Assembly: GCF_027942865.1 (NCBI RefSeq)
Contig: NC_134515.1
Location: 12,357,339 to 12,421,338, forward strand
Reading direction: 5' to 3'
From: Odontesthes bonariensis
Taxonomy: Eukaryota; Chordata; Actinopteri; Atheriniformes; Atherinopsidae
DNA: 64,000 bases
Shown here: positions 11,501 to 56,297 of the stretch, one piece after another
How the letters are laid out: every line of letters begins with the position of its first letter
Numbering within the stretch: position 1 is the stretch's first letter
Notes under the pieces: generated by a model
Told to the model about the DNA's origin: nothing
The model's database searches: none
What the model saw: only the letters and a program-made list of their open reading frames with translations
Made by a program: the position numbers and the translations under genes

Positions 11501-14500
11501 GTCATCGTAACAGTTACCTCTTGGATTGTGATTAAAGACATACCCCGGTAGTTGTGGCTGGTCTTCGGTGTCTGCATTGAGCCATGTCTCTGTTAAACAA
11601 ATACAGTCAGCTTTCATTAGGGTTTTGTGGGATTGCATGTCGTCAAAGTGAGCATTCAAACTCTGTACATTGTGAAGTGCAATCGTGCAGACCGGATCAA
11701 CGTCAGGTGAACCAATACTTTTGAAGTTGAACTTTGGCAAGCTCTTCATGGCTGTGTCTACTTTGTCATCACAAAATATAGCTGTCTCTTTGAAGTCCTT
11801 AATAATCAGTCCATCAAGAGTTCTCACACGACTCAATGCAACATATGCTTGCCCTGCAGCAAAGATTTTGTTGAGTGATACAACAGCTCTGTCAACAGTA
11901 ACACCTTGGCACTTATGTACCGTCATTGCCCAAGCCAGGGTGAGAGGAAATTGCCTTCGTATTCCACCAGCATTTGATACTTGATCCTCTTGTACCTCCA
12001 CAATTGTAGAGCGTTCAGAGTTTCTTTTGGATTTTGACCTCTGCATCTTTCCAACATTAGGGTTTTCAAACTCAACATGGATAGCAATAGGAATGTCATC
12101 CTTATCTTCACCATTAATAATTTCCACAACCGTACCACACACACCATTGACGAGGCCGTCAGACACGTCTATATTTTTCTTCAACATCACCTTTGCTCCA
12201 ATGCCCAAAGACACACACCTTGGCAAGCACGAGTTGAAAACCTTTGTATGGAAGCCTAATTTTGGTTCCATTCTTCCAGTTTTGGGACTCCGTGTAAAAT
12301 CTTGGGCATCTATGCTGATTGCATCTGGGCAATGCTTTTGCAGTCTAGTGATATTGTATTTATCAACCTCTGCATTTGTAGCATATATGTGAATGTCTGT
12401 GGAGTCTTCACCAGTTTCACGTTGTTTTAATGCAAACACATCATGCCCACTGAGATGTTCATTCTTTTTACGAACTCTGAGACGATTCAGCATCTCCGCA
12501 AATTCTGCATTTTCTTGCCTCAAAACTTTGGTAAGCTCAGCCACTTCAAAGTTGTTGTCCCACATGTTGGCTTCTGTGTTGTCAGAAAAAAGAGGTGTGC
12601 CTTTGACAGGTCTCAACTGAAAGAAGTCACCCACGCAGATCAGGGAAACATTTGCAAACAAAGAATAATCACCAGTCTGTTTTATTTGACGTAGTCTGCC
12701 ATGAACGTAGGACAAAAGACGGTGGTCAACCATGGACACTTCATCAATGATCAAAATCTGCAAGTTTCGCATTTTCATCCTTAAAGTATTTACCTTCTCA
12801 TCACCAAGAGGTTGATATGGCAGCTTAACATTTGCACCAATGGAGAATGTACTGTGAATAGTTGCAGCACCAATGTTATATGCAGCCACACCAGTGGGCG
12901 CTGTAAGGAGCACAGTCAGATCATCTGGATTGTCAGAAATCTGTGACAGCAGTCGTGTAGATTCGTACTGGATGGCTTTGATCAAATGGGATTTGCCTGT
13001 TCCTGCTCCACCAGTAATGAACAATCGCAACGGTTCAGGATTCTGTCCAAAGAGTATCTGCAGACACCACCGACGTACAGCATAAAATATTGCTGCCTGC
13101 TCTTCATTCAGTGTTCGCAATAAACCTAGTGCAGCATCTCGGGGCATTGTCATGTGATTAGTTTCCAGAGTGCACGTTGTCTGTGGATTTGCTGTCAGGT
13201 CAGGAATAAGATCACCAACATCATCACTGCCTTCTTCATCATCTACAGCTTTGGGTTTCATATCCAAACAACTGAGACGTTCGCTTTCTGTTTCTGGACA
13301 TATCTGAGCCCAAGCGTCTTCTAAATCAATGTCGTTATCCAGCAACTGTTTGGCTTTGTCAATCTCATCGCTTTCTTTTTCAAATAAAGCTTTGTTGGAG
13401 TCCACAATTGACTGCACTTTTTGGATGTCAGAGCCACATTTCACTGCACCAGTTGTGTAGAACTGTTCGTATGTTTCAAACTGAGGCGGTCTGAGGTGGA
13501 AGTCCTCATAATAAGGCAAAAACAGCTGCAGCAATGAATGAAAGTACTTTTCTGGATTTTTTGTGTGTGAAAACCTGGGATATCTCACAACAGCAGGCTG
13601 TGTTCTGGTCCTTTTTCTGATGAAGCCACGGTTGTTGTTCAGTTGTATTATGTCCTGTGATTCTCTTTGTGGTGAAACCTCAGACTTTGAAAGAACTCTG
13701 TACTGAGAGCAAAAGCTGGCAAGGCATAACTCCTCCATTTCTGCTGATCTGGGTCTACTTTTGTATCTTTCCACCACATTAGTCATCCAAATGCTACTGT
13801 CATCATCAGGCTGTTGGAGCTGAGCTCTAGCTTGGAGCACATGCAAAGGCAAACTCATTCTAACAGGATTTTCACCAACAGGAATAAACTGTACATCACG
13901 AGAACATTCCTTCAAACGCATACGAGTCAAACGATACACTGCCTCTTGAGCTGAAACTTCTCTGTTGTGCAGGTAGACGCTGCCGAGCTGTTTGAATGCA
14001 GCTTTTGCATCAAGATTGCCATTCATCGCCTCCTTCTGTGCACGCTGTAACAGCAAACCCATTTCTTGCTCTGCTTTTGTGATGTATGACAGTATATAGA
14101 CCACAACAGAATAGGCGTCGGTGATATACTGAATGTCCATGTTTCCTTGCCAAGCACGCAGTAAGTCTTTATTGTACTGGTTCACCCAAATATCAGACGG
14201 ATTTCGCTTATGGACAATGCTTTTCTTTTTGGAACATATGGTGTATGCTCTCTCAAACAGGCCTTGATGTATCCCAAGAGACTCAAAAAAAGCATCAGCT
14301 GTATCAAAACTCAGGTCAGGATTGGCCAGCGCTGTTTTCACCTTCTTTATGATTGCATTGGCATTGGTATTTTCATCTTTTCCATTCAGGTCCTCTGAGT
14401 TCCCAGCTCTTGTAATGAAAGTACGGCTTGATGGAGGTCGTGGGAAATTGAATCGGCACACTGTATTTTTCTTACGGCATGTTTTTGAGTGTTTTGTGCT

Positions 14501-17500
14501 GTGTCTTTGTACGCTGCTCACAACCTCATGAAGCTCTGCATCAGACTCTGGTGGAATATCACAGGAAATGTATCTGTCTATGAAACGTACCACATCAGCA
14601 TCACTGTCTTTATCAATCTTTGGTGCATCTTCCACCCAAAACAAACAGTGAACATGAGGAGAACCACGCTGTTGGAATTCAACTCGATAGAAGTAGTCCT
14701 TTATTTTGCCTATGGGTTCAGCTGGTGACAGGATTACATCACGAAGAAAACAATGCCATCGATAGTCAAACATTCTTGCTGCAGTAACTGGATTTCTTCC
14801 AATCAACGCACATTTTTGAGACCAGTCAAGTTCCTCCACAGGTGTTTCTTTTCCTTCTAACCTCAAAAGAGAAGCAAGCATTTCAGGCCATCTCAGATCA
14901 GCACTTGACATGCTTATGAAAAACGTTGGAATTGACAGTTGTCGAATCATACTGAACAAATCTTTCTGTACTGCCATCCAGTAAGGTGGGGTTCCACGAA
15001 TTCCTCGCAAGAACTTGTACCCTTCATCATTTCGTAATATTTTACTGAGTGAATCTGAGTTCAACAACATGTTTGATGCTTCTTTCAGAGATGATTTGCC
15101 GCCACCTTTGCGCATTGCCACTGATACACCAGATATGACTTGATGCACTTCTGATATGTACTGTGCATAAAATATGTAGTCTGTGTTGCGACCAAAACGT
15201 CCATCAGCGTTGAGAATGCGACAGTTCAGGTAACGTGACAGAGTTATTTTTGATTCCCTTTCATCGTGGAATGTAGGTCCACCCAATGGAAACAGAGCAG
15301 GAAAGCATTTGGCCTCGTTGGTTTTATCAGATAGTAAACGAACTGGACTGTTGCCTTCAGCTGGTGCCACGCTCAGTATATCCTGAAAATTCTGATCAAT
15401 GATCTCTGAACCCAGATTGACAGGTTGCAATGATGTGTCTGACAAGAGGCCACTCTGGTCTTTAATGTAGGTCAGTTCCTCCTCTGCTTGCTCTTCCTCA
15501 AGATTATTTTCATCATCACTGTTATTTTCATTATCACTGTTAGCTGGCAGCTCTTGGTTGTCCTCATTTGCCTCACATTGATCACTTCCATTCAGAGTGT
15601 TTACCCATTCATCATTTAAAATGACATCATCATACCACTTATTGTTTGCCATCAAATACCTCAGTGCATTCCTTACACGATCAGTGTGGACATACATGTA
15701 CTCATAATGACCTTTGTATGTCAACTTGCGTTTGAGTTTGACTCTTATCATTTTATCATCACACTCGTTCCTTGGCAGAATGTTTGTCACGCTACTGTTA
15801 TCAACAGGTACAGAGACACATGGACCATGGCAAGCTCTTTGGCGGCCTCGGGGCAAACACAGCAGCTTCATGAAGGGAATGTGACGAGCAATGAGATGTT
15901 CCTCCAAAGAATTCAGACATTTCAGTTCAGGTGGAATTTCATCCAAATGCATGTTGTTGGTGACACTCTCTTCTGGTAGTTTTCCTCCAAGCATTTTCCG
16001 ATGACAGGAATGGCAAACCCATAATTTGCTGCAAGGACTATCAGACAAATGACATTCCTGCCCACATTCAATATCACAAACGTGTAAATATTGCAATGTT
16101 ATACACCTCTTAGCCAGTGCAGCAACCTCTGGTCTTTTGCTTTCATAATGAGATCTTTTACACTCAATCACTTGTTTCCTGAAAAGTAAGCGATGACAAA
16201 CAGAGCATACGTATTCAGGACCACAGCTTACGTCTTGACGAAACTGACTGATGACAAAGTCAATGTCTTGTTGCTTCTTTCTCATATTTGCATGAGTGTC
16301 ACTGCTACTCTTAATTTTGTTTTGGCGAATTTCGTCATATTCATGATATTTCATCTTGCTTTTCTCGTTGATCTTCTTTTGAAACACGATGTTGCTCTTG
16401 TACTTCTTATGACTATAATCACGGACTTTATGTTGAAACACAACGTTGCTCTTGTACTTCTTATGACTATAATCACGGACTTTATGTTGAAACCCAATGT
16501 TGCTTTTGTACTTCTTATGACTATAATCACGGACTTTATGTTGAAACCCAATGTTGCTTTTGTACTTCTTATGACTATAATCACGGACTTTATGTTGAAA
16601 CCCAATGTTGCTCTTGTACTTTGTATGACTGTAATCACGGACTTTATGTTGAAACCCAATGTTGCTCTTGTACTTTGTATGACTGTAATCACGGACTTTA
16701 TGTTGAAACCCAATGTTGCTCTTGTACTTTGTATGACTGTAATCACGGACTTTATTTTGAAATATGATGTTTGTCTGATAAGTGTTTTTTGAGGATTCAC
16801 ACTTTGATTTTTTTAAATTTGAATCAGTACCATATTTATTATTATACTGTGCAAGTTTACGTGCCTTGAACTGCACATCGGTTCCATAGTTTGTGTTGAA
16901 ATAATCACATTTCCTTTTCCGAAACTCAGAATTCATGCTGTTCTTGTGAAAATGTTCAAGAGAAGTCTCACGTTTGGCACTCCTAATGTACTCACATTCA
17001 TTATATTGCTTCTTTTGATTCTCAGTTTTTCGCTTCTTCACATTGATATCACTGCACCGTTGACGTTCTTTTTCTGCTTTCGTGTCTGACTCGGTGAACT
17101 TTCTTTTCCGCTGGGGTCTTAACGTTCCCTCACCAATAGACTGGCATGTTCCGGCACAAGGACTCTGCGTATTTCGGTTTTTAACGCATGTTACAACCTC
17201 ATAATGATTGGCGGTGTGATTTAAATATATACAGTTCTGAATGCATGGGCGTACAGTAGGTCTGTGCATGTTCCATCTCCCATCATTTAAGGTGAAGATA
17301 GTAGTTTGGAATAAATCGGCAGCAGCAAATATGTCGATCTCCTTTGCCCAGGTCCCACAGTAGTGTATCCTTGATTTTGTTACATAGTCCTGTACAGATG
17401 TATATTCATCTCTCAAGTAAGTCTCAAACTTATTGCTGTATTTCTGGAGGTGTTTCGTTACAGCCCGTCTAATTTTCAAGTGCTTCTCTTCATTGCTACA

Positions 17501-19303
17501 AATGCTAAAGGCAAGGCTGCGGTAAAAGCAATTCCCATCTGGCTTAATGCTTTGTATCTTACAAGGACAGCCCATATCATCAACACTGGTTGTTGCCTTC
17601 AACGCTTCAACATTTTCATTTGAAAGTCCAACAGCTTTGCACAGTGTATCCTGATCACTGCGAGTTAAAGGTTTAAATGCCTGCTTTGGGACATTTGTGT
17701 CAGTGATAATTACGTCATCACTGTGTGTTTTGCAAGTTGTCTCGTGCAGTTCAAAATCCCCTTTTATTTGAGCACGTTTAGCCTTTTCTGCAGAAGTCTC
17801 TTTTCGATTTACCTTTTGTCCAGCACCATTACGTGCAGCCTCTGATCGATCGATTGTAGCCGTCAGCTTGGTGTCATCTTTACCCAACATAGTTTCAGGA
17901 ACACATTCAGGCTTCTGTGAAACATTACTCACGACACGTCTCAAAACATCGCTGTACAAAGGTTTGGTATTTGGGTTCGATTCACTCTTTGTGGACGCAG
18001 TTTGGTTGTTTGCATTACCTGGAACAGCAGTTGACGTTACTGAGCAACTTGTAGCCGTCTGACGTTTGTGCAAACCTTTTGATCCTGTTACCACATCGCT
18101 GTACAGCTGACGTACCTTTGCATGTGTCAACGTAGCTGTGTTACCTCGGGATGTGACGTTCTGTGATCGTCGTTCATTGCCAGTTCTGGTTACCGCAGCA
18201 CTCACTCCTGTTACCTCAAACCGTGGTGTACTTACGCCAAACGATTGTGCATAATCATACACAAAGCTGACCAGTGACTGTGCGGAGCTAAAGTATGAAA
18301 CACAACTTACCCTCTGACCTTTGTGATTAACCCAGGTGTTTGCATGAGAATTAACAAAGGCAAATCTGGTCTCTCCATTCACGATGGCACAAGTATTTCC
18401 ACAAATAGTCAACAAGCAAGCATCATGACTGAACAGTGCGCGCTGCAGTGCTTCATCAAAAGGCAAAGCCACATCACATAAAGCAGGATCATAATTGTCA
18501 ACACAAACAAACCCAGTGTAAGAATCTCCAAAGTTTAATGCAAAATCACAATTCCACACCCTGTGTTGTCTAGGCAATTCTGACACAGCAATGTAACCCC
18601 TTCCTTCAACATGGTCTCTGATTTGTTCATGTGCACTCATAGACTTGTACAACAGAGTTCCTTTTATTAAAACATCATCCAGATCTCCAGTTTCCCAGGT
18701 CCAAACGTTCTTCATCTTGGATTTCAGAACAGCTGTCAGACTGATGGCACCGCACTGCTTGTTGCCCACGTTACCAAAACGCACATCACCTTGATGAAAG
18801 GAGCCCGTCAGGAAAGACCTCTCTGGAAAATCAGGCTGAGTCAAAGTAACACACTCATTAGTAACATTGGGTTCATTCATGCAAGATGCATTATTTGAAG
18901 ATAGCTTGATAGCACAGTCAAGAGAGAGAGAGCTTGGAGATTCAGTTTGGAAAGAAGTTTTTTGCAAGTTGGTAGAGAACTTTTCAGCACTTGTTTGAGA
19001 CTTGTTAGAGAACTTTTCAGCACTTGTTTGAGACTTGTTAGAGAACTTTTCAGCACTTGTTTGAGAGTTTGAGAGTGGGGAGTCTGCAACGTTTCTGTAT
19101 TGAACATTTCTGTATTGAACATTTCTGTATTGAACATTTCTGTATTGAACATCAAAGTCATGAACATCAAAGTCATACGCCTTTTCAGGCCAGCTTGATG
19201 TTTGGGCTTTCCAGGTGCAAGGACGCCCAACCTTGCTTCCAGGAGACCATAAGTCATCCTGGGTGCCAGTCGCTGCTCTTTTGGTGGAACACACCTGCAA
19301 CAC
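5537..19303 (-). CDS. Helentron (Helitron2) RepHel polyprotein with C76-like, OTU, Rep, Pif1 helicase and EEP domains (copy A, assembly-inflated)
   Basis: The frame stays open for 4588 codons, but 1834 of them (10889-16390) are a 500-N gap plus a duplicate of 5887-10888. The true frame is probably 2754 codons, from 19303-16391 joined to 10888-5537. Domain order is as in copy B: 11-residue repeats; C76-like protease (NKQCGAISL, later VNSH); OTU (DGNC, NHYEV); 18-residue Lys-rich repeats; CxxC clusters; HUH Rep (GSPHVHCLFW, YILSYITKAE); Pif1 helicase (GGAGTGKS, IIDEVSMVD); EEP nuclease (TETWL, GDFNED, SFHD). It would replicate and move the element by rolling-circle transposition. The long frame begins at GTG, not ATG; the first in-frame ATG is at 18880. 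I prefer a spliced start from 19713-19775 joined to an exon beginning at 19294. No stop codon interrupts it. Confidence 0.9.
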   Translation of the reverse strand: MLQVCSTKRAATGTQDDLWSPGSKVGRPCTWKAQTSSWPEKAYDFDVHDFDVQYRNVQYRNVQYRNVQYRNVADSPLSNSQTSAEKFSNKSQTSAEKFSNKSQTSAEKFSTNLQKTSFQTESPSSLSLDCAIKLSSNNASCMNEPNVTNECVTLTQPDFPERSFLTGSFHQGDVRFGNVGNKQCGAISLTAVLKSKMKNVWTWETGDLDDVLIKGTLLYKSMSAHEQIRDHVEGRGYIAVSELPRQHRVWNCDFALNFGDSYTGFVCVDNYDPALCDVALPFDEALQRALFSHDACLLTICGNTCAIVNGETRFAFVNSHANTWVNHKGQRVSCVSYFSSAQSLVSFVYDYAQSFGVSTPRFEVTGVSAAVTRTGNERRSQNVTSRGNTATLTHAKVRQLYSDVVTGSKGLHKRQTATSCSVTSTAVPGNANNQTASTKSESNPNTKPLYSDVLRRVVSNVSQKPECVPETMLGKDDTKLTATIDRSEAARNGAGQKVNRKETSAEKAKRAQIKGDFELHETTCKTHSDDVIITDTNVPKQAFKPLTRSDQDTLCKAVGLSNENVEALKATTSVDDMGCPCKIQSIKPDGNCFYRSLAFSICSNEEKHLKIRRAVTKHLQKYSNKFETYLRDEYTSVQDYVTKSRIHYCGTWAKEIDIFAAADLFQTTIFTLNDGRWNMHRPTVRPCIQNCIYLNHTANHYEVVTCVKNRNTQSPCAGTCQSIGEGTLRPQRKRKFTESDTKAEKERQRCSDINVKKRKTENQKKQYNECEYIRSAKRETSLEHFHKNSMNSEFRKRKCDYFNTNYGTDVQFKARKLAQYNNKYGTDSNLKKSKCESSKNTYQTNIIFQNKVRDYSHTKYKSNIGFQHKVRDYSHTKYKSNIGFQHKVRDYSHTKYKSNIGFQHKVRDYSHKKYKSNIGFQHKVRDYSHKKYKSNIGFQHKVRDYSHKKYKSNVVFQHKVRDYSHKKYKSNIVFQKKINEKSKMKYHEYDEIRQNKIKSSSDTHANMRKKQQDIDFVISQFRQDVSCGPEYVCSVCHRLLFRKQVIECKRSHYESKRPEVAALAKRCITLQYLHVCDIECGQECHLSDSPCSKLWVCHSCHRKMLGGKLPEESVTNNMHLDEIPPELKCLNSLEEHLIARHIPFMKLLCLPRGRQRACHGPCVSVPVDNSSVTNILPRNECDDKMIRVKLKRKLTYKGHYEYMYVHTDRVRNALRYLMANNKWYDDVILNDEWVNTLNGSDQCEANEDNQELPANSDNENNSDDENNLEEEQAEEELTYIKDQSGLLSDTSLQPVNLGSEIIDQNFQDILSVAPAEGNSPVRLLSDKTNEAKCFPALFPLGGPTFHDERESKITLSRYLNCRILNADGRFGRNTDYIFYAQYISEVHQVISGVSVAMRKGGGKSSLKEASNMLLNSDSLSKILRNDEGYKFLRGIRGTPPYWMAVQKDLFSMIRQLSIPTFFISMSSADLRWPEMLASLLRLEGKETPVEELDWSQKCALIGRNPVTAARMFDYRWHCFLRDVILSPAEPIGKIKDYFYRVEFQQRGSPHVHCLFWVEDAPKIDKDSDADVVRFIDRYISCDIPPESDAELHEVVSSVQRHSTKHSKTCRKKNTVCRFNFPRPPSSRTFITRAGNSEDLNGKDENTNANAIIKKVKTALANPDLSFDTADAFFESLGIHQGLFERAYTICSKKKSIVHKRNPSDIWVNQYNKDLLRAWQGNMDIQYITDAYSVVVYILSYITKAEQEMGLLLQRAQKEAMNGNLDAKAAFKQLGSVYLHNREVSAQEAVYRLTRMRLKECSRDVQFIPVGENPVRMSLPLHVLQARAQLQQPDDDSSIWMTNVVERYKSRPRSAEMEELCLASFCSQYRVLSKSEVSPQRESQDIIQLNNNRGFIRKRTRTQPAVVRYPRFSHTKNPEKYFHSLLQLFLPYYEDFHLRPPQFETYEQFYTTGAVKCGSDIQKVQSIVDSNKALFEKESDEIDKAKQLLDNDIDLEDAWAQICPETESERLSCLDMKPKAVDDEEGSDDVGDLIPDLTANPQTTCTLETNHMTMPRDAALGLLRTLNEEQAAIFYAVRRWCLQILFGQNPEPLRLFITGGAGTGKSHLIKAIQYESTRLLSQISDNPDDLTVLLTAPTGVAAYNIGAATIHSTFSIGANVKLPYQPLGDEKVNTLRMKMRNLQILIIDEVSMVDHRLLSYVHGRLRQIKQTGDYSLFANVSLICVGDFFQLRPVKGTPLFSDNTEANMWDNNFEVAELTKVLRQENAEFAEMLNRLRVRKKNEHLSGHDVFALKQRETGEDSTDIHIYATNAEVDKYNITRLQKHCPDAISIDAQDFTRSPKTGRMEPKLGFHTKVFNSCLPRCVSLGIGAKVMLKKNIDVSDGLVNGVCGTVVEIINGEDKDDIPIAIHVEFENPNVGKMQRSKSKRNSERSTIVEVQEDQVSNAGGIRRQFPLTLAWAMTVHKCQGVTVDRAVVSLNKIFAAGQAYVALSRVRTLDGLIIKDFKETAIFCDDKVDTAMKSLPKFNFKSIGSPDVDPVCTIALHNVQSLNAHFDDMQSHKTLMKADCICLTETWLNADTEDQPQLPGYVFNHNPRGNCYDDSDTVFAALKQQQRGGVGLYYSDNIDVQVSIPKRCNLEXXXXXXXXXXXXXXXXXXXXXXXXXXXXXXXXXXXXXXXXXXXXXXXXXXXXXXXXXXXXXXXXXXXXXXXXXXXXXXXXXXXXXXXXXXXXXXXXXXXXXXXXXXXXXXXXXXXXXXXXXXXXXXXXXXXXXXXXXXXXXXXXXXXXXXXXXXXXXXXXXXXXXXXIVFQKKINEKSKMKYHEYDEIRQNKIKSSSDTHANMRKKQQDIDFVISQFRQDVSCGPEYVCSVCHRLLFRKQVIECKRSHYESKRPEVAALAKRCITLQYLHVCDIECGQECHLSDSPCSKLWVCHSCHRKMLGGKLPEESVTNNMHLDEIPPELKCLNSLEEHLIARHIPFMKLLCLPRGRQRACHGPCVSVPVDNSSVTNILPRNECDDKMIRVKLKRKLTYKGHYEYMYVHTDRVRNALRYLMANNKWYDDVILNDEWVNTLNGSDQCEANEDNQELPANSDNENNSDDENNLEEEQAEEELTYIKDQSGLLSDTSLQPVNLGSEIIDQNFQDILSVAPAEGNSPVRLLSDKTNEAKCFPALFPLGGPTFHDERESKITLSRYLNCRILNADGRFGRNTDYIFYAQYISEVHQVISGVSVAMRKGGGKSSLKEASNMLLNSDSLSKILRNDEGYKFLRGIRGTPPYWMAVQKDLFSMIRQLSIPTFFISMSSADLRWPEMLASLLRLEGKETPVEELDWSQKCALIGRNPVTAARMFDYRWHCFLRDVILSPAEPIGKIKDYFYRVEFQQRGSPHVHCLFWVEDAPKIDKDSDADVVRFIDRYISCDIPPESDAELHEVVSSVQRHSTKHSKTCRKKNTVCRFNFPRPPSSRTFITRAGNSEDLNGKDENTNANAIIKKVKTALANPDLSFDTADAFFESLGIHQGLFERAYTICSKKKSIVHKRNPSDIWVNQYNKDLLRAWQGNMDIQYITDAYSVVVYILSYITKAEQEMGLLLQRAQKEAMNGNLDAKAAFKQLGSVYLHNREVSAQEAVYRLTRMRLKECSRDVQFIPVGENPVRMSLPLHVLQARAQLQQPDDDSSIWMTNVVERYKSRPRSAEMEELCLASFCSQYRVLSKSEVSPQRESQDIIQLNNNRGFIRKRTRTQPAVVRYPRFSHTKNPEKYFHSLLQLFLPYYEDFHLRPPQFETYEQFYTTGAVKCGSDIQKVQSIVDSNKALFEKESDEIDKAKQLLDNDIDLEDAWAQICPETESERLSCLDMKPKAVDDEEGSDDVGDLIPDLTANPQTTCTLETNHMTMPRDAALGLLRTLNEEQAAIFYAVRRWCLQILFGQNPEPLRLFITGGAGTGKSHLIKAIQYESTRLLSQISDNPDDLTVLLTAPTGVAAYNIGAATIHSTFSIGANVKLPYQPLGDEKVNTLRMKMRNLQILIIDEVSMVDHRLLSYVHGRLRQIKQTGDYSLFANVSLICVGDFFQLRPVKGTPLFSDNTEANMWDNNFEVAELTKVLRQENAEFAEMLNRLRVRKKNEHLSGHDVFALKQRETGEDSTDIHIYATNAEVDKYNITRLQKHCPDAISIDAQDFTRSPKTGRMEPKLGFHTKVFNSCLPRCVSLGIGAKVMLKKNIDVSDGLVNGVCGTVVEIINGEDKDDIPIAIHVEFENPNVGKMQRSKSKRNSERSTIVEVQEDQVSNAGGIRRQFPLTLAWAMTVHKCQGVTVDRAVVSLNKIFAAGQAYVALSRVRTLDGLIIKDFKETAIFCDDKVDTAMKSLPKFNFKSIGSPDVDPVCTIALHNVQSLNAHFDDMQSHKTLMKADCICLTETWLNADTEDQPQLPGYVFNHNPRGNCYDDSDTVFAALKQQQRGGVGLYYSDNIDVQVSIPKRCNLECLYFHMSHVNLTAVVLYRPSSYKIDMFRKQLSQVVFELEKHAGRKMIMGDFNEDVFVSSTVAKFLEQHGYTQHVQAATTERGTLIDHVYCKDVGDIVVDVVQTYYSFHDAILISLL
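5887..10888. repeat. 5002-bp segment repeated exactly after the assembly gap (left copy)
   Basis: This stretch reappears at 11389-16390 with a constant offset of 5502 and no indel that I could see. Both copies translate to the same residues wherever I compared them. It ends at the N run, just where the 54-bp in-frame tandem repeats begin in the right-hand copy. The pattern is that of two contig ends that overlap but were not merged. Confidence 0.9.
10889..11388. other. Assembly gap (500 N)
   Basis: Exactly 500 unknown bases, a conventional placeholder length. Both sides belong to the Helentron coding frame. Open frames of ~190-240 codons across this run are artefacts of unspecified bases. 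Confidence 0.99.
11389..16390. repeat. 5002-bp segment repeated exactly before the assembly gap (right copy)
   Basis: Right partner of 5887-10888. It runs from within the EEP domain (residues ...KRCNLE) back to the start of the Lys-rich repeat array. Removing 10889-16390 takes out 5502 bases, a multiple of three, and leaves one uninterrupted full-length frame. Confidence 0.9.
16391..16768 (-). repeat. 54-bp in-frame tandem repeat (18-residue unit), 7 copies, gene A
   Basis: Seven near-identical 54-base units encode an 18-residue Lys/His/Tyr-rich motif containing VRDYSHKKYKSN. They lie between the OTU domain and the first Cys cluster. Copy B has four units. The unit is a multiple of three, so gain or loss keeps the frame. 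Confidence 0.95.
18971..19069 (-). repeat. 33-bp in-frame tandem repeat (SQTSAEKFSNK), 3 copies, gene A
   Basis: Three 33-base units near the N-terminal side of the Helentron frame, against five in copy B. A shorter 15-base repeat (VQYRN, four copies) follows at about 19088-19150. Both are low-complexity, probably disordered segments ahead of the first protease domain. Confidence 0.9.
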
Positions 19304-19513
19304 ACAAATTGAACAGCGTTATTTACACATAACACACCTCATTCTTGCTGTTTTTAAGCACATAATACATCACGCCCTCCGACATCTCATTTGAATTTTC
19401 CTACAGTCAATACACAACCTCACGTACTGTTTTTACTCCTCACTACATCAACTGGCATGTGCTGCTTTTTGTAGGAGAAAAAAAAAAAAAGTAAAAGATT
19501 GCATAGCACTGAG

Positions 19514-30640: not shown

Positions 30641-30642
30641 AA

Positions 30643-39390: not shown

Positions 39391-42300
39391 TTACAACAAT
39401 GAGATAAAAATGGCATCATGAAAGCTGTAGTATGTCTGTACAACATCGACAACAACATCTCCTACATCTTTACAGTAAACATGATCTATTAACGTACCTC
39501 TTTCTGTTGTAGCTGCTTGGACATGTTGGGTGTATCCATGTTGTTCCAGGAATTTTGCCACAGTAGACGATACAAAGACATCCTCATTGAAGTCTCCCAT
39601 GATCATCTTCCTCCCTGCATGCTTCTCAAGTTCAAAGACAACATGTGATAACTGCTGTCGAAACATGTCAATCTTATAGGAAGATGGCCTGTACAAAACA
39701 ACAGCAGTCAAATTGACATGAGACATATGGAAATACAAACATTCCAAGTTGCATCTCTTTGGAATTGACACCTGCACATCAATGTTGTCTGAATAATACA
39801 AACCAACTCCTCCTCTTTGCTGTTGTTTCAATGCTGCAAAAACTGTGTCAGAGTCATCGTAACAGTTACCTCTTGGATTGTGATTAAATACATACCCCGG
39901 TAGTTGTGGCTGGTCTTCGGTGTCTGCATTGAGCCATGTCTCTGTTAAACAAATACAGTCAGCTTTCATTAGGGTTTTGTGGGATTGCATGTCGTCAAAG
40001 TGAGCATTCAAACTCTGTACATTGTGGAGTGCAATCGTGCAGACCGGATCAATGTCAGGTGAACCAATACTTTTGAAGTTGAACTTTGGCAAGCTCTTCA
40101 TGGCTGTGTCTACTTTGTCATCACAAAATATAGCTGTCTCTTTGAAGTCCTTAATAATCAGTCCATCAAGAGTTCTCACACGACTCAATGCAACATATGC
40201 TTGGCCTGCAGCAAAGATTTTGTTGAGTGATACAACAGCTCTGTCAACAGTAAGACCTTGGCACTTATGTACTGTCATTGCCCAAGCCAGGGTGAGAGGA
40301 AATTGCCTTCGTATTCCACCAGCATTTGATACTTGATCCTCTTGTACCTCCACAATTGTAGAGCGTTCAGAGCTTCTTTTGGATTTTGACCTCTGCATCT
40401 TTCCAACATTAGGGTTTTCAAACTCAACATGGATAGCAATAGGAATGTCATCCTTATCTTCACCATTAATAATTTCCACAACCGTACCACACACACCATT
40501 GACGAGGCCGTCAGACACGTCTATATTTTTCTTCAACATCACCTTTGCTCCAATGCCCAAAGACACACACCTTGGCAAGCACGAGTTGAAAACCTTTGTA
40601 TGGAAGCCTAATTTTGGTTCCATTCTTCCAGTTTTGGGACTCCGTGTAAAATCTTGGGCATCTATGCTGATTGCATCTGGGCAATGCTTTTGCAGTCTAG
40701 TGATATTGTATTTATCAACCTCTGCATTTGTAGCATATATGTGAATGTCTGTAGAGTCTTCACCAGTTTCACGTTGCTTTAACGTAAACACATCATGCCC
40801 ACTGAGATGTTCATTCTTTTTACGAACTCTGAGACGATTCAGCATCTCCGCAAATTCTGCATTTTCTTGTCTCAAAACTTTGGTAAGCTCAGCCACTTCA
40901 AAGTTGTTGTTCCACATGTTGGCTTCTGTGTTGTCAGAAAAAAGAGGTGTGCCTTTGACAGGTCTCAACTGAAAGAAGTCACCCACGCAGATCAGGGAAA
41001 CATTTGCAAACAAAGAATAATCACCAGTCTGTTTTATTTGACGCAGTCTGCCATGAACGTAGGACAAAAGACGGTGGTCAACCATGGACACTTCATCAAT
41101 GATCAAAATCTGCAAGTTTCGCATTTTCATCCTTAAAGTATTTACCTTCTCATCACCAAGAGGTTGATATGGCAGCTTAACATTTGCACCAATGGAGAAT
41201 GTATTGTGAATGGTTTTAGCACCAATGTTATATGCAGCCACACCAGTGGGCGCTGTAAGGAGCACAGTCAGATCATCTGGATTGTCAGCAATCTGTGACA
41301 GCAGTCGTGTAGATTCGTACTGGATGGCTTTGATCAAATGGGATTTGCCTGTTCCTGCTCCACCAGTAATGAACAATCGCAACGGTTCAGGATTCTGTCC
41401 AAAGAGTATCTGCAGACACCACCGACGTACAGCATAAAATATTGCCGCCTGCTCTTCATTCAATGTTCGCAATAAACCTAGTGCAGCATCTCGGGGCATT
41501 GTCATGTGATTAGTTTCCAGAGTGCATGTTGTCTGTGGATTTGCTGTCAGGTCAGGAATAAGATCACCAACATCATCACTGCCTTCTTCATCATCTACAG
41601 CTTTGTGTTTCATATCCAAACAACTGAGACGTTCGCTTTCTGTTTCCGGACATATCTGAGCCCAAGCGTCTTCTAAATCAATGTCATTATCCAGCAACTG
41701 CTTTGCTTTGTCAATCTCATCGCTTTCTTTTTCAAATAAAGCTTTGTTGGAGTCCACAATTGACTGCACTTTTTGGATGTCAGAGCCACATTTCACTGCA
41801 CCACTTGTGTAGAACTGTTCATATGTTTCAAACTGAGGCGGTCTGAGGTGGAAGTCCTCATAATAAGGCAAAAACAGCTGCAGCAATGAATGGAAGTACT
41901 TTTCTGGATTTTTTGTGTGTGAAAACCTGGGATATCTCACAACAGCAGGCTGTGTTCTGGTCCTTTTTCTGATAAAGCCACGGTTGTTGTTGAGTTGTAT
42001 TATGTCCTGTGATTCTCTTTGTGGTGAAACCTCAGACTTTGAAAGAACTCTGTACTGAGAGCAAAAGCTGGCAAGGCATAACTCCTCCATTTCTGCTGAT
42101 CTGGGTCTGCTCTTGTATCTTTCCACCACATTAGTCATCCAAATGCTACTCTCATCATCAGACTGTTGGAGCTGAGCTTTAGCTTGGAGCACATGCAAAG
42201 GCAAACTCATCCTAACAGGATTTTCGCCAACAGGAATAAACTGTACATCACGAGAACATTCCTTCAAACGCATACGAGTCAATCGATACACTGCCTCTTG

Positions 42301-45300
42301 AGCTGAAACTTCTCTGTTGTGCAGGTAGACGCTGCCGAGCTGTTTGAATGCAGCTTTTGCATCAAGATTGCCATTCATCGCCTCCTTCTGTGCACGCTGT
42401 AACAGCAAACCCATTTCTTGTTCTGCTTTTGTGATGTATGACAGTATGTAGACCACAACAGAATAGGCATCGGTGACATACTGTATGTCCATGTTTCCTT
42501 GCCAAGCACGCAGTAAGTCTTTATTGTACTGGTTCACCCAAATATCAGATGGATTCCGCTTATGGACAATGCTTTTCTTTTTGGAACATATGCTGTATGC
42601 TCTCTCAAACAGGCCTTGATGTATCCCAAGAGACTCAAAAAAAGCATCAGCTGTATCAAAACTCAGGTCAGGATTGGCCAGCGCTGTTTTCACTTTCTTT
42701 ATTATTGCACTGGCATTGGTATTTTCATCTTTTCCATTCAGGTCCTCTGAGTTCCCAGCTCTTGTAATGAAAGTACGGCTTGATGGAGGTCGTGGGAAAT
42801 TGAATCGGCACACTGTATTTTTCTTACGGCATGTTTTTGAGTGTTTTGTGCTGTGTCTTTGTACGCTGCTCACAACCTCATGAAGCTCTGCATCAGACTC
42901 TGGTGGAATATCACAGGAAATGTATCTGTCTATGAAAGTTACCACATCAGCATCACTGTCTTTATCAATCTTTGGTGCATCTTCCACCCAAAACAAACAG
43001 TGAACATGAGGAGAACCACGCTGTTGGAATTCAACTCGATAGAAGTAGTCCTTTATTTTGCCTATGGGTTCAGCTGGTGACAGGATTACGTCATGAAGAA
43101 AACAATGCCATCGATAGTCAAACATTCTCGCTGCAGTAACTGGATTTCTTCCAATCAGCGCACATTTTTGAGACCAGTCAAGATCCTCCACAGGTGTTTC
43201 TTTTCCTTCCAACCTCAAAAGAGAAGCAAGCATTTCAGGCCATCTCAGATCAGCACTTGACATGCTTATGAAAAACGTTGGAATTGACAGTTGTCGAATC
43301 ATACTGAACAAATCTTTCTGTACTGCCATCCAGTAAGGTGGGGTTCCACGAATTCCTCGCAAGAACTTGTACCCTTCATCATTTCGTAATATTTTACTGA
43401 GTGAATCTGAGTTCAACAACATGTCTGATGCTTCTTTCAGAGATGATTTGCCGCCACCTTTGCGCATTGCCACTGATACACCTGATATGACTTGATGCAC
43501 TTCTGATATGTACTGTGCATAAAATATGTAGTCTGTGTTGCGACCAAAACGTCCATCAGCGTTGAGAATGCGACAGTTCAGGTAACGTGACAGAGTTATT
43601 TTTGATTCCCTTTCATCGTGGAATGTAGGTCCACCCAATGGAAACAGAGCAGGAAAGCATTTGGCCTCGTTGGTTTTATCAGATAGTAACCGAACTGGAC
43701 TGTTGCCCTCAGCAGGTGCCACACTCAGTATATCCTGGAAATTCTGGTCAATGATCTCTGAACCCAGATTGACAGGCTGCAATGATGTGTCTGACAAGAG
43801 GCCACTCTGGTCTTTAATGTAGGTCAGTTCCTCCTCTGCTTGCTCTGGCTCAAGTTTACTTTCATCATCACTGTTATTTTCATCATCACTGTTAGCTGGC
43901 AGCTCTTGGTTGTCCTCATTTGCCTCGCATTGATCACTTCCATTCAGAGTGTTTACCCATTCATCATTAAAAATGACATCATCATACCACTTATTGTTTG
44001 CCATCAAATACCTCAGTGCATTCCTTACACGATCAGTGTGGACATACATGTACTCATAATGACCTTTGTATGTCAACTTGCGTTTGAGTTTGACTCTTAT
44101 CATTTTGTCATCACACTCGTTCCTTGGCAGAATGTTTGTCACACTACTGTTATCAACAGGTACAGAGACACATGGACCATGGCAAGCTCTTTGGCGGCCT
44201 CGGGGCAAACACAGCAGCTTCATGAAGGGAATGTGACGAGCAATGAGATGTTCCTCCAAAGAGTTCAGACATTTCAGCTCAGGTGGAATTTCATCCAAAT
44301 GCATGTTGTTGGTGACACTCTCTTCTGGTAGTTTTCCTCCAAGCATTTTCCGATGGCACGAATGACAAACCCATAATTTGCTGCTAGGACTGTCAGACAA
44401 ATGACATTCCTGCCCACATTCAGTATCACAAACGTGTAAATATTGCAATGTTATACACCTCTTAGCCAGCGCAGCAACCTCTGGTCTTTTGCTTTCATAA
44501 TGAGATCTTTTACACTCAATCACTTGTTTCCTGAAAAGTAAGCGATGACAAACTGAGCATACGTATTCAGGACCACGGCTTACGTCTTGACGAAACTGAC
44601 TGATGACAAAATCAATGTTTTGTTGCTTCTTTCTCATATTTGCATAAGTGTCACTGCTACTCTTAATTTTATTTTCACGAATCTCGTCACATTGATGATA
44701 TTTCATCTTGCTATTCTCTTTGAGCTTCTTTTGAAACACAATGTTGCTCTTGTACTTCTTATGACTATAATCACGGACTTTATGTTGAAACAAGATGTTG
44801 CTCTTGTACTTCTTATGACTATAATCACGGACTTTATTTTGAAACAAGATGTTGCTCTTGTACTTCTTATGACTATAATCACGGACTTTATGTTGAAACA
44901 AGATGTTGCTCTTGTACTTCTTATGACTATAATCACGGACTTTATGTTGAAATATGATGTTTGTCTGATAAGTGTTTTTTGAGGATTCACACATTGATTT
45001 TTTAAAACTTGGATCAGTATCATATTTTTTTTTACACTGTGCAAGTTTACGTGCCTTGAACTGCAAATCTGTTTTATACTTTGTATTGAAGTCATCACAT
45101 TTCTTTTTCAGGAACTCAGAATTTTCTCTGTTTTTACGAAAGCGCTCACGTTTCGCATTCCTAATGCACTCATATTCATTATACTGCTTCTTTTCATTCT
45201 CAGTTTTTCGCTTCTTCACATTGATGTCACTGCACCGTAGACGTTCTTTTTCTGCTTTCGTGTCTGACTCGGTGAACTTTCTTTTCCGCTGGGGTCTTAA

Positions 45301-47520
45301 CGTTCCCTCACCAATAGACTGGCATGTTCCGGCACAAGGACTCTGCGCATTTCGGTTTTTGACGCATGTTACAACCTCATAATGATTGGCGGTGTGATTT
45401 AAATATATACAGTTCTGAATGCATGGACGTACAGTAGGTCTGTGCATGTTCCATCTCCCATCATTTAAGGTGAAGATAGTAGTTTGGAATAAATCGGCAG
45501 CAGCAAATATGTCGATCTCCTTTGCCCAGGTCCCACAGTAGTGTATCCTTGATTTTGTGACATAGTCCTGTACAGATGTATATTCATCTCTCAAATAAGT
45601 CTCAAACTTATTGCTGTATTTCTGGAGGTGTTTCGTTACAGCCCGTCTAATTTTCAAGTGCTTCTCTTCATTATGACAAATGCTAAAGGCAAGGCTGCGG
45701 TAAAAGCAATTCCCATCTGGCTTAATGGTTTGTAACTTACAAGGACAGCCCATATCATCAACACTGGTTGTTGCTTTTAACTCTTCAACATTTTCGTTTG
45801 AAAGTCCAACAGTTTTGCACAGTGTATCCTGATCACTGCGAGTTAAAGGTTTAAATGCCTGCTTTGGGACATTTGTGTCAGTGATAATTACGTCATCGCT
45901 GTGTGTTTTGGAAGTCATTTCGTGCAGTCCAAAATCACCTTTAGTTTGAGCACGTTTAGTATTTTTTGCAGAAGTCTCTTTTTGATTTACCTTGTTTTGT
46001 CCAGTACCATTACGTGCAGCCTCTGATCGATCGATTGTAGCCGTCAGCTTGGTGTCATCTTTACCCAACAGAGTTTCAGGAACACATTCAGGCTTTTGTG
46101 AAACATTACTCATGACACGCCTCAAAACATCGCTGTACAAAGGTCTGGTATTCGGGTTCGATTCACTCTTTGTGGGCAGAGTTTGGTGGTTTGCATTACC
46201 TGGAACAGTAGTTGACGTTACTGAGCAACTTGTAGCCATCTGATGTTTGTGCAAACCTTTCGATCCTGTTACAACATCGCTGTACAGCTGACGTACCTTT
46301 GCATGTTTCAACGTAGTCGTGAAGTTCTGTGATCGCCGTTCATTGCCAGTTCTGGTTACCGCAGCACTCACTCCTGTTACCTCAAACCGTGGGTTGCTTA
46401 CGCCAAACGATTGTGCATAATCATACACAAAGCTGACCAGTGACTGTGCAGAGCTAAAGTATGAAACACAACTTACCCTCTGACCTTTGTGATTAACCCA
46501 GGTGTTTGCATGAGAATTAATGAAGGCAAATCTGGTCTCTCCATTCACAATGGCACAAGTATTTCCACAAATAGTCAACAAGCAAGCATCATGAGTGAAC
46601 AGTGCACGCTGCAGTGCTTCATCAAAAGGCAAAGCCACATCACATAAAGCAGGATCATAATTGTCAACACAAACAAACCCAGTGTAAGAATCTCCAAAGT
46701 TTAATACAAAATCACAATTCCACACCCTGTGTTGTCTAGGCAATTCTGACACAGCAATGTAACCCCTTCCTTCAACATGGTCTCTTATTTGTTCATGTGC
46801 ACTCATAGACTTGTACAACAGAGTTCCTTTTATTAAAACATCATCCAGATCTCCAGTTTTCCAGGTCCAAACGTTCTTCATCTTGGATTTCAGAACAGCT
46901 GTCAGACTGATGGCACCACACTGCTTGTTGCCCACGTTACCAAAACGCACATCACCTTGATGAAAGGAGCCCGTCAGGAAAGACCTCTCTGGAAAATCGT
47001 CAGGCTGAGTCAAAGTAACACACTCATTAGTAACATTGGGTTCATTCATGCAAGAAACATTTGAGGATAGCTTGATAGCAGAGTCAAGAGAGAGAGAGCT
47101 TGGAGATTCAGTTTGGAAAGAAGTTTTTTGCAAGTTGGTAGAGAACTTTTCAGCACTTGTTTGAGACTTGTTAGAGAACTTTTCAGCACTTGTTTGAGAC
47201 TTGTTAGAGAACTTTTCAGCACTTGTTTGAGACTTGTTAGAGAACTTTTCAGCACTTGTTTGAGACTTGTTAGAGAACTTTTCAGCACTTGTTTGAGAGT
47301 TTGAGAGTGGGGAGTCTGCAACGTTTAAGTATTGAACATTTAAGTCATGAACATTTAAGTATTGAACATCAAAGTCATGAACATCAAAGTCATGCGCCTT
47401 TTCAGGCCAGCTTGATGTTTGGGCTTTCCAGGTGCAAGGACGCCCAACCTTGCTTCCAGGAGACCATAAGTCATCCTGGGTGCCAGTCGCTGCTCTTTTG
47501 GTGGAACACACCTGCAACAC
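39391..47520 (-). CDS. Helentron (Helitron2) RepHel polyprotein, intact copy B
   Basis: Open for 2709 residues (numbered from the GTG at 47520). Residues 60-130: SQTSAEKFSNK repeats. About 185-390: peptidase C76-like fold with NKQCGAISL (Cys201), YIAVSELP and FINSH (Asn335, His337). About 598-720: OTU protease with DGNC (Asp602, Cys605) and NHYEV (His713). About 853-927: 18-residue Lys-rich repeats. From Cys988: CxxC clusters, probably zinc-binding. About 1300-1700: Helitron Rep with HVH (His1505, His1507), Tyr1691, Tyr1695 and Lys1698. About 2035-2470: Pif1 helicase with GGAGTGKS (Lys2059) and IIDEVSMVD (Asp2142). About 2490-2709: endonuclease with Glu2527, Asp2643, Asn2645 and His2701. First in-frame ATG is at 47049. 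A spliced start from 47931-47993 is preferred. Confidence 0.93.
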   Translation of the reverse strand: MLQVCSTKRAATGTQDDLWSPGSKVGRPCTWKAQTSSWPEKAHDFDVHDFDVQYLNVHDLNVQYLNVADSPLSNSQTSAEKFSNKSQTSAEKFSNKSQTSAEKFSNKSQTSAEKFSNKSQTSAEKFSTNLQKTSFQTESPSSLSLDSAIKLSSNVSCMNEPNVTNECVTLTQPDDFPERSFLTGSFHQGDVRFGNVGNKQCGAISLTAVLKSKMKNVWTWKTGDLDDVLIKGTLLYKSMSAHEQIRDHVEGRGYIAVSELPRQHRVWNCDFVLNFGDSYTGFVCVDNYDPALCDVALPFDEALQRALFTHDACLLTICGNTCAIVNGETRFAFINSHANTWVNHKGQRVSCVSYFSSAQSLVSFVYDYAQSFGVSNPRFEVTGVSAAVTRTGNERRSQNFTTTLKHAKVRQLYSDVVTGSKGLHKHQMATSCSVTSTTVPGNANHQTLPTKSESNPNTRPLYSDVLRRVMSNVSQKPECVPETLLGKDDTKLTATIDRSEAARNGTGQNKVNQKETSAKNTKRAQTKGDFGLHEMTSKTHSDDVIITDTNVPKQAFKPLTRSDQDTLCKTVGLSNENVEELKATTSVDDMGCPCKLQTIKPDGNCFYRSLAFSICHNEEKHLKIRRAVTKHLQKYSNKFETYLRDEYTSVQDYVTKSRIHYCGTWAKEIDIFAAADLFQTTIFTLNDGRWNMHRPTVRPCIQNCIYLNHTANHYEVVTCVKNRNAQSPCAGTCQSIGEGTLRPQRKRKFTESDTKAEKERLRCSDINVKKRKTENEKKQYNEYECIRNAKRERFRKNRENSEFLKKKCDDFNTKYKTDLQFKARKLAQCKKKYDTDPSFKKSMCESSKNTYQTNIIFQHKVRDYSHKKYKSNILFQHKVRDYSHKKYKSNILFQNKVRDYSHKKYKSNILFQHKVRDYSHKKYKSNIVFQKKLKENSKMKYHQCDEIRENKIKSSSDTYANMRKKQQNIDFVISQFRQDVSRGPEYVCSVCHRLLFRKQVIECKRSHYESKRPEVAALAKRCITLQYLHVCDTECGQECHLSDSPSSKLWVCHSCHRKMLGGKLPEESVTNNMHLDEIPPELKCLNSLEEHLIARHIPFMKLLCLPRGRQRACHGPCVSVPVDNSSVTNILPRNECDDKMIRVKLKRKLTYKGHYEYMYVHTDRVRNALRYLMANNKWYDDVIFNDEWVNTLNGSDQCEANEDNQELPANSDDENNSDDESKLEPEQAEEELTYIKDQSGLLSDTSLQPVNLGSEIIDQNFQDILSVAPAEGNSPVRLLSDKTNEAKCFPALFPLGGPTFHDERESKITLSRYLNCRILNADGRFGRNTDYIFYAQYISEVHQVISGVSVAMRKGGGKSSLKEASDMLLNSDSLSKILRNDEGYKFLRGIRGTPPYWMAVQKDLFSMIRQLSIPTFFISMSSADLRWPEMLASLLRLEGKETPVEDLDWSQKCALIGRNPVTAARMFDYRWHCFLHDVILSPAEPIGKIKDYFYRVEFQQRGSPHVHCLFWVEDAPKIDKDSDADVVTFIDRYISCDIPPESDAELHEVVSSVQRHSTKHSKTCRKKNTVCRFNFPRPPSSRTFITRAGNSEDLNGKDENTNASAIIKKVKTALANPDLSFDTADAFFESLGIHQGLFERAYSICSKKKSIVHKRNPSDIWVNQYNKDLLRAWQGNMDIQYVTDAYSVVVYILSYITKAEQEMGLLLQRAQKEAMNGNLDAKAAFKQLGSVYLHNREVSAQEAVYRLTRMRLKECSRDVQFIPVGENPVRMSLPLHVLQAKAQLQQSDDESSIWMTNVVERYKSRPRSAEMEELCLASFCSQYRVLSKSEVSPQRESQDIIQLNNNRGFIRKRTRTQPAVVRYPRFSHTKNPEKYFHSLLQLFLPYYEDFHLRPPQFETYEQFYTSGAVKCGSDIQKVQSIVDSNKALFEKESDEIDKAKQLLDNDIDLEDAWAQICPETESERLSCLDMKHKAVDDEEGSDDVGDLIPDLTANPQTTCTLETNHMTMPRDAALGLLRTLNEEQAAIFYAVRRWCLQILFGQNPEPLRLFITGGAGTGKSHLIKAIQYESTRLLSQIADNPDDLTVLLTAPTGVAAYNIGAKTIHNTFSIGANVKLPYQPLGDEKVNTLRMKMRNLQILIIDEVSMVDHRLLSYVHGRLRQIKQTGDYSLFANVSLICVGDFFQLRPVKGTPLFSDNTEANMWNNNFEVAELTKVLRQENAEFAEMLNRLRVRKKNEHLSGHDVFTLKQRETGEDSTDIHIYATNAEVDKYNITRLQKHCPDAISIDAQDFTRSPKTGRMEPKLGFHTKVFNSCLPRCVSLGIGAKVMLKKNIDVSDGLVNGVCGTVVEIINGEDKDDIPIAIHVEFENPNVGKMQRSKSKRSSERSTIVEVQEDQVSNAGGIRRQFPLTLAWAMTVHKCQGLTVDRAVVSLNKIFAAGQAYVALSRVRTLDGLIIKDFKETAIFCDDKVDTAMKSLPKFNFKSIGSPDIDPVCTIALHNVQSLNAHFDDMQSHKTLMKADCICLTETWLNADTEDQPQLPGYVFNHNPRGNCYDDSDTVFAALKQQQRGGVGLYYSDNIDVQVSIPKRCNLECLYFHMSHVNLTAVVLYRPSSYKIDMFRQQLSHVVFELEKHAGRKMIMGDFNEDVFVSSTVAKFLEQHGYTQHVQAATTERGTLIDHVYCKDVGDVVVDVVQTYYSFHDAIFISLL
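44743..44958 (-). repeat. 54-bp in-frame tandem repeat, 4 copies, gene B
   Basis: Four units encode the same VRDYSHKKYKSN-type 18-residue motif as 16391-16768, where there are seven. The frame is preserved on both sides. Confidence 0.95.
47136..47300 (-). repeat. 33-bp in-frame tandem repeat (SQTSAEKFSNK), 5 copies, gene B
   Basis: Five 33-base units, against three in copy A. The last unit reads SQTSAEKFSTN. Expansion in multiples of three retains the open frame. Confidence 0.95.
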
Positions 47521-47731
47521 ACAAATTGAACAGCGTTATTTACACATAACACACCTCATTCTTGCTGTTTTTAAGCACATAATACATCACGCCCTCCGAC
47601 ATCTCATTTGAATTTTCCTACAGTCAATACACAACCTCACGTACTGTTTTTACACCTCACTACATCAACTGGCATGTGCTGCTTTTTGTAGGAGAAAAAA
47701 AAAAAAAAGTAAAAGATTGCATAGCACTGAG

Positions 47732-47766
47732 ATTGTAATTTTCCCCTTCTTAGGGAATAATGCAAT
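47732..47766. other. 35-bp micro-inverted segment relative to copy A
   Basis: It starts attgtaattttccccttct and is the exact reverse complement of 19514-19548, with collinear flanks. Which orientation is ancestral cannot be told from two copies. Confidence 0.95.
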
Positions 47767-47819
47767 GTCACTTGTAAATTTATTTAATGTAATTAAATAA
47801 ATAAATTTACAAGTGACAT
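47765..47819. other. 55-bp palindrome in the inferred intron, copy B
   Basis: Same 21-bp perfect arms and 13-base loop as 19547-19601. It lies inside the inferred intron and abuts the micro-inverted segment. Confidence 0.95.
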
Positions 47820-47930
47820 CACTTATTTTGCATAGCTGCCTCTTTTCCTTGAGTTAGTGCTATTAACACAACTATTCCTTGCACCAGACCCTGTCAATCA
47901 GTGGTAAATTGTAGACGTGTGAAAAACCAC

Positions 47931-47993
47931 CTCTGAGAGCTCACGATCAGCCAGTCTCTTCTTTGCAGCCGCAGATTTTTTGGAACGTCCCAT
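47931..47993 (-). CDS. Inferred first coding exon of Helentron gene B
   Basis: ATG at 47993 starts the same 21-codon basic peptide as in copy A, followed by a GT donor (GAG/GTGGTT). The acceptor TTGTGTGTTGCAG lets the exon resume at 47511 in phase 0, giving a predicted protein of 2727 residues and a 419-bp intron. Predicted from frame and signals only. Confidence 0.55.
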
Positions 47994-56293: not shown

Positions 56294-56297
56294 TTAA

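What the first reader, a model, noticed from the sequence alone, without database searches (positions are those of the whole stretch)
39391..47993. Helentron polyprotein with two different cysteine protease domains ahead of Rep-helicase-endonuclease
One intact frame carries a herpes-tegument-type C76-like domain (Cys201, His337), then an OTU domain (Asp602, Cys605, His713), then HUH Rep, Pif1 helicase and an EEP nuclease. OTU and EEP domains are known in fish Helentrons. The additional C76-like domain suggests either tandem deubiquitinase activity or self-processing of a very large precursor. Both copies have Asn-Ser-His where an Asp-x-His pair would be expected, so the first domain may be altered in activity.
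Basis: partly seen in the sequence, partly recalled or inferred. Interest (0 to 1): 0.75.

Follow-up and report, generated by a model that had tools for sequence, protein, structure and literature searches.

The report
Transposon protein with two deubiquitinase-like domains
This is a jumping-gene (Helentron) protein that carries two different ubiquitin-protease-type domains, an arrangement already published; what stands out is that the first of them lacks one of its three expected active-site residues although the gene's reading frame is intact.

Summary
A frame at 39391-47535 (-), probably with a short 5' exon at 47993, encodes a viral-tegument-like (C76/VTD) domain, OTU, Rep, Pif1 helicase and an endonuclease. 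The first domain's best solved-structure match by sequence is 8ADD, a zebrafish Helitron VTD (E=0.0027); Pfam Herpes_teg_N is below its cut-off (E=8.8e-4). The combination is not new: Erven et al. 2022 (PMC9741609) report VTDs in Helentrons, 121 also with OTU, and show zebrafish ones to be deubiquitinases. What differs is Asn-Ser-His in both gene copies, where the published family has an 'invariable' Asp-x-His whose Asp is essential in 8ADD. The VTD still looks about as constrained as the core domains (dN/dS 0.20; small counts, neutral P=0.056). Most likely it is a weakened or inactive VTD, with the OTU as working deubiquitinase. The endonuclease's Ser-Asp-His is also Ser-Phe-His in both copies. 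The structure model was uninformative and the own-genome search did not complete. The window's second, 4588-aa frame is an assembly artefact.

The parts
47931..47993 (-). probable exon 1 (21 codons, lysine/arginine-rich start), joined in phase to exon 2
   Evidence: ATG, GT...AG ends at 47930-47512 and in-phase junction read from the sequence; identical in copy B; inferred, no transcript
39391..47511 (-). main coding exon of Helentron copy A
   Evidence: open frame 39391-47535
46351..46983 (-). VTD / peptidase C76-like domain; Cys201 codon 46920-46918, Asn335 codon 46518-46516, His337 codon 46512-46510 (GTG numbering)
   Evidence: phmmer to 8add_A E=0.0027; Pfam Herpes_teg_N E=8.8e-4, below cut-off; shuffle control
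45331..45753 (-). OTU domain with Asp602, Cys605, His713 (GTG numbering)
   Evidence: Pfam OTU 1.9e-10 in the whole protein, 2.6e-11 alone; PDB best match OTUD3 4bou, E=6.5e-7
44731..44961 (-). 54-bp tandem repeats coding an 18-residue repeat between OTU and Rep; 4.3 copies here, 7.1 in copy B (16379-16762)
43954..44337 (-). DUF6570 domain
   Evidence: Pfam 2.3e-21
42994..43584 (-). Helitron_like_N / HUH Rep region; HVH motif at 43008-43000
   Evidence: Pfam 7.9e-28; motif also in L002
40474..41463 (-). Pif1-type helicase with Walker A and B motifs and 2B domain
   Evidence: Pfam PIF1 6e-23, Pif1_2B_dom 5.2e-7; motifs shared with L002
39460..39966 (-). EEP endonuclease domain (Pfam-matched part)
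   Evidence: Pfam Exo_endo_phos 1.2e-6
39418..39426 (-). EEP terminal motif Ser-Phe-His (Phe codon 39423-39421) where relative L002 has Ser-Asp-His
   Evidence: motif and codon comparison; same in copy B
5537..19318 (-). copy B of the gene, interrupted by an assembly gap (N at 10889-11388) with 5002 identical bases on both sides
18170..18829 (-). copy B VTD region, also Asn-Ser-His

Best explanation
A Helentron (rolling-circle transposon) gene encoding VTD - OTU - DUF6570 - Rep - Pif1 helicase - EEP. In the published proposal for such elements the deubiquitinase domains protect proteins needed for transposition from proteasomal degradation. In this lineage the VTD has exchanged its acidic triad residue (Asp-x-His to Asn-Ser-His) and one ubiquitin-tail contact (Asp to Ser), so it is most likely a weak or dead enzyme kept as a ubiquitin-binding or folding module, while the OTU, whose motif residues are intact, supplies deubiquitination. 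Shown here: domains, residues, both copies alike, core-like dN/dS. Shown elsewhere: activity of zebrafish Helitron VTDs and their need for the Asp. Inferred: loss or weakening of activity here, the division of labour between domains, any benefit to transposition.
For: The 8ADD match aligns Cys to Cys, an upstream Gln to Gln (its oxyanion role is recalled), and Asp-Ser-His to Asn-Ser-His. C322A, D451A and H453A each abolish DrT1-VTD2 activity, and D376A and E377A strongly reduce chain cleavage; the window has Ser at the D376 position and keeps Glu at E377. The OTU keeps Asp-Gly-Asn-Cys and His in both copies. VTD dN/dS is 0.20, near OTU 0.24, Rep 0.17, helicase 0.23 and EEP 0.21, against 0.46 for the following linker and 1.51 for the N-terminus. 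Erven et al. note OTU beside or instead of VTD in Helitrons, and inactive VTDs in insects.
Against: Constraint counts are small: VTD 6 nonsynonymous and 7 synonymous changes, neutral P=0.056; Fisher against the linker P=0.34, against N-terminus plus linker P=0.20. Asp to Asn was not among the mutants in the sections read, so residual activity is possible; OTULIN's third catalytic residue is Asn, and SnOTU has Leu there (passages of PMC10643670). Nothing here tests the OTU's activity, and transposon OTUs had not been assayed by 2022. The EEP also departs from its motif in both copies, so the lineage may simply be decaying.
Confidence: 0.6

Rival explanations
1. The VTD is still a working deubiquitinase: Asn serves as the third residue, so the protein carries two active DUBs.
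For: Cys, His, the upstream Gln and the Glu that contacts the ubiquitin tail are kept; VTD dN/dS resembles the catalytic domains; Asn is the third catalytic residue of OTULIN and, as recalled, of papain.
Against: Asp-x-His is called invariable and D451A is dead; a second helpful position (D376) is also changed.
Confidence: 0.22
2. Both copies are decaying remnants of a formerly active element; shared substitutions in VTD and EEP are early lesions, and the apparent constraint predates their silencing.
For: Two enzyme motifs are altered in both copies; the per-domain constraint statistics are weak; both copies sit in one colinear, satellite-flanked duplicated segment.
Against: Both frames stay open apart from the assembly gap; dN/dS over 2690 codons is 0.28, unlike neutral decay since the copies parted.
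Confidence: 0.15
3. VTD and/or OTU cut the 2.7-thousand-residue precursor into working units (self-processing).
For: Very long single frame; Thomas et al. 2014 propose cleavage of the Rep/helicase/endonuclease subunits as one option.
Against: No cleavage-site evidence; I made no search for sites. The characterised Helitron VTDs act on ubiquitin and, for two of three, NEDD8.
Confidence: 0.03

Closest known systems
Zebrafish Helitrons DrT2 (one active VTD + OTU) and DrT1 (two VTDs, no OTU), Erven et al. 2022, PMC9741609
   Same: Helentron-type proteins with VTD, OTU (DrT2), Rep-helicase and AP-type endonuclease; 121 VTD-Helitrons with OTU reported
   Different: Active VTDs there have Asp-x-His; here Asn-Ser-His. 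Only one VTD detected here (no Herpes_teg_N hit in the N-terminus, linker or mid region)
Herpesviral large tegument protein deubiquitinase (peptidase C76; M48, UL36, BPLF1)
   Same: Same domain family by Pfam Herpes_teg_N, below cut-off
   Different: Capsid-attached viral protein, not a transposon polyprotein; Asp-x-His present
Insect inactive VTDs (iVTD), Erven et al. 2022
   Same: VTD homologues lacking one or more active-site residues
   Different: Those lie outside a recognisable transposon; here the domain is still in a Helentron frame
Helentrons (Thomas et al. 2014, PMC4067079) and locus L002
   Same: Rep-helicase-EEP order; L002 is 61.5% identical in Rep, 56.1% in helicase, 39.9% in EEP
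   Different: L002 ends before the N-terminal domains and keeps Ser-Asp-His in EEP

Membership tests
Helentron | HUH Rep plus Pif1 helicase in one protein | tested here: met
   Pfam Helitron_like_N and PIF1; motifs HVH and GGAGTGKS
Helentron | C-terminal AP-type (EEP) endonuclease | tested here: met
   Pfam Exo_endo_phos 1.2e-6; but the terminal Ser-Asp-His is Ser-Phe-His in both copies
Helentron | element ends: subterminal inverted repeats, insertion in poly-T | not tested
   the two copies share colinear flanks into satellite-like repeats, so no clean boundary was available
VTD (viral tegument-like DUB / C76) | sequence similarity to VTD / Herpes_teg_N | tested here: met
   8add_A E=0.0027, first of 5 hits up to E=10; Herpes_teg_N 8.8e-4 and 6e-4, both below the curated cut-off; 0 of 1000 shuffles reach the alignment score
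VTD (viral tegument-like DUB / C76) | catalytic Cys and His | tested here: met
   Cys201 and His337 in both copies
VTD (viral tegument-like DUB / C76) | Asp of the Asp-x-His motif (active enzymes) | tested here: not met
   Asn335, codon AAT, in both copies; so filed as a VTD homologue, not as a canonical active VTD
VTD (viral tegument-like DUB / C76) | papain-like fold | tested here: inconclusive
   AlphaFold2 on two near-identical sequences, mean pLDDT 32.6; no fold search run
VTD (viral tegument-like DUB / C76) | ubiquitin cleavage | not testable with these tools
   needs an assay
OTU | OTU profile with Asp-Gly-Asn-Cys and downstream His | tested here: met
   Pfam OTU above cut-off; OTUD3 4bou E=6.5e-7; that the Asp three before the Cys can be catalytic in OTUs is recalled

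The most novel reading that the evidence does not exclude
The VTD remains a selected, catalytic ubiquitin protease with a rebuilt triad in which Asn replaces the supposedly invariable Asp, either as Asn335-x-His337 or, more boldly, as His337-x-Asn339 in the classical papain order, an intermediate between the flipped VTD site and the ordinary one.
Probability: 0.12. Interest if true: 0.5.

Novelty: new variant of a known kind. Interest (0 to 1): 0.3.

Why it matters
Erven et al. [quoted passage not shown] An element with an open frame and both domains, one missing its triad acid, could be an intermediate in such a swap and makes the redundancy idea testable on two separable domains. Otherwise it confirms a published architecture.

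Tried and rejected
Relatives. VTD, Rep, helicase, a 51-residue Rep piece and OTU were scanned in viral contigs (5 of 8 scans used); single-sequence queries find close relatives only, and no VTD relative was found. The one locus accepted there, L001, is a match over 27 query residues; no Helitron-like frame is visible (by eye) among the 17 frames listed in the 11.9 kb held of that 45-kb contig, so I take it as chance. L002 is a real Helentron Rep-helicase-EEP frame in a MAG contig, probably eukaryotic contamination, cut off before the N-terminal domains. L003 matches inside a 348-residue frame of a bacterial contig and I take it as chance. PHROGs had no hit for the VTD.

A second VTD, as in zebrafish DrT1, was sought in the N-terminus, linker and mid region: no Herpes_teg_N hit; linker and mid region had no hit at all, the N-terminus two weak unrelated ones.

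Structure. The VTD model is unusable (mean pLDDT 32.6), so no fold search was run; the OTU was not modelled. One search was translated in a wrong frame and is not used. Self-processing is kept only as a low rival. A 4588-residue double protein (copy B) was rejected as an assembly artefact.

In one search my table of mapped positions was off by one at D451 and H453 (by my count the chain has one residue fewer between Cys and His than the paper's numbers imply); the Asp-Ser-His to Asn-Ser-His correspondence is taken from the printed alignments.
Full report
Observation. The window holds two frames of 250 codons or more. Frame A, 39391-47535 (-), has 2714 codons. The ATG at 47993 opens 21 codons (47993-47931), followed by a stretch with GT...AG ends (47930-47512) and an in-phase join to 47511; exon 1 is identical in copy B. 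This would give a protein of about 2727 residues; the exon is inferred, without transcript.

Domains. Pfam on the whole protein gives eight families above their cut-offs: Helitron_like_N (7.9e-28), PIF1 (6e-23), DUF6570 (2.3e-21), AAA_30, AAA_19, OTU (1.9e-10), Pif1_2B_dom (5.2e-7) and Exo_endo_phos (1.2e-6). The first domain is not listed in that scan. Alone, its only hit is Herpes_teg_N (8.8e-4, copy B 6e-4; 19.4 and 19.9 bits against a cut-off of 25). Against solved-structure sequences its best of 5 hits up to E=10 is 8add_A (0.0027), listed as 'ATP-dependent DNA helicase', which is the zebrafish Helitron DrT1-VTD2 of Erven et al.; the other four are UV endonucleases at E about 1. The local alignment score is 76 against a maximum of 52 in 1000 shuffles. 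The OTU domain's best solved match is OTUD3 (4bou, 6.5e-7).

Active sites. Gln188, Cys201 and His337 line up with Gln, Cys and His of 8ADD; the Asp of Asp-Ser-His is Asn335 here, in both copies, codon AAT. Of the two acidic residues that Erven et al. show to matter for the ubiquitin tail, the Asp is Ser here and the Glu is kept. The OTU has Asp602, Cys605 and His713 in both copies. Compared with relative L002, the Rep and helicase motifs I checked are kept, but the EEP terminal Ser-Asp-His is Ser-Phe-His in both copies.

Two copies, not three. Bases 5887-10888 and 11389-16390 are 100% identical over 5002 bases on either side of a 500-N gap, which points to a false duplication at the gap; the 4588-aa frame is an artefact.

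Constraint. Between copies A and B, dN/dS (Nei-Gojobori type count) is 0.28 over 2690 codons, and by region 1.51 N-terminus (residues that include eight codons of probable intron), 0.20 VTD, 0.46 linker, 0.24 OTU, 0.31 mid region, 0.06 DUF6570, 0.16 and 0.12 for the stretches before and after Rep, 0.17 Rep, 0.23 helicase, 0.21 EEP. With simulated neutral mutations the probability of so few nonsynonymous changes is 0.056 for VTD, 0.13 OTU, 0.035 DUF6570, 0.053 Rep, 0.020 helicase, 0.078 EEP, 0.23 linker and 0.93 N-terminus (eight domains or regions tested). VTD does not differ from the pooled OTU, DUF6570, Rep, helicase and EEP (Fisher P=1.0), but neither is it shown to differ from the linker (0.34) or from linker plus N-terminus (0.20). 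So the VTD resembles the core, on small counts; linker alignments with indels are less certain.

What is known. Erven et al. 2022 (PMC9741609; I read the outline and abstract, 12 of 29 found passages, sections 6 and 8, and part 1 of 2 of section 13) found most non-viral VTDs in Helitrons of the Helentron subclass, 121 of them with OTU as well; zebrafish Helitron VTDs cleave ubiquitin; Asp-x-His is 'invariable' and D451A is dead; apart from several pseudogenised sequences the VTDs of presumed autonomous Helitrons keep all catalytic residues; insect inactive VTDs exist. Thomas et al. 2014 (PMC4067079; passages and section 16) had OTU in Helentrons and suggested chromatin signalling or cleavage of the Rep/helicase/endonuclease subunits. 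Hence the architecture is known. In what I read I saw no Asn-x-His Helentron VTD described; the searches were 20 of 75 papers listed; 3; 1; 1; 8 of 26 listed; 2; figures and supplements were not available, so this is no proof of absence.

Interpretation. Most likely the element relies on the OTU for deubiquitination and keeps the VTD as a weakened or non-catalytic module. Asn is the third catalytic residue of OTULIN, and SnOTU has Leu there (passages of PMC10643670; SnOTU's activity is not stated in the passages I rely on), so retained activity is not excluded. Self-processing has no support here.

Limits. The structure model failed (mean pLDDT 32.6 on two near-identical sequences).

Noticed in passing
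5887-16390: 5002 bases repeated at 100% identity on both sides of a 500-N gap: probable false duplication in the assembly, producing a spurious 4588-aa frame.
   Followed up: yes
39418-39426 and the matching codons of copy B: The EEP endonuclease has Ser-Phe-His in place of Ser-Asp-His in both copies, while relative L002 has Ser-Asp-His; endonuclease activity may be altered.
   Followed up: partly
2661-35017 and 35774-60670: The two gene copies lie in colinear units (blocks 88-99% identical), with satellite-like repeats of about 1.07-1.08 kb on both sides (0.2-2.7, 31.7-35.0, 57.4-64 kb): perhaps a tandem duplication or a very large rolling-circle unit.
   Followed up: partly
20200-25442 and 48432-51759: Tandem repeats of about 0.82 and 1.09 kb upstream of each gene, apparently in different copy number.
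   Followed up: no
44731-44961, 16379-16762, 47135-47298, 18969-19066: In-frame minisatellites (54- and 33-bp units) inside the coding region differ in copy number between the two gene copies.
   Followed up: no
54819-56334 and 29161-30679 (-): Broken frames that look by eye like the C-terminal part of a LINE reverse transcriptase; not searched.
   Followed up: no
L002 (CAMQXY010000195.1): A contig binned as uncultured Photobacterium encodes a 1533-residue Helentron Rep-helicase-EEP frame, probably eukaryotic contamination of the MAG.
   Followed up: partly
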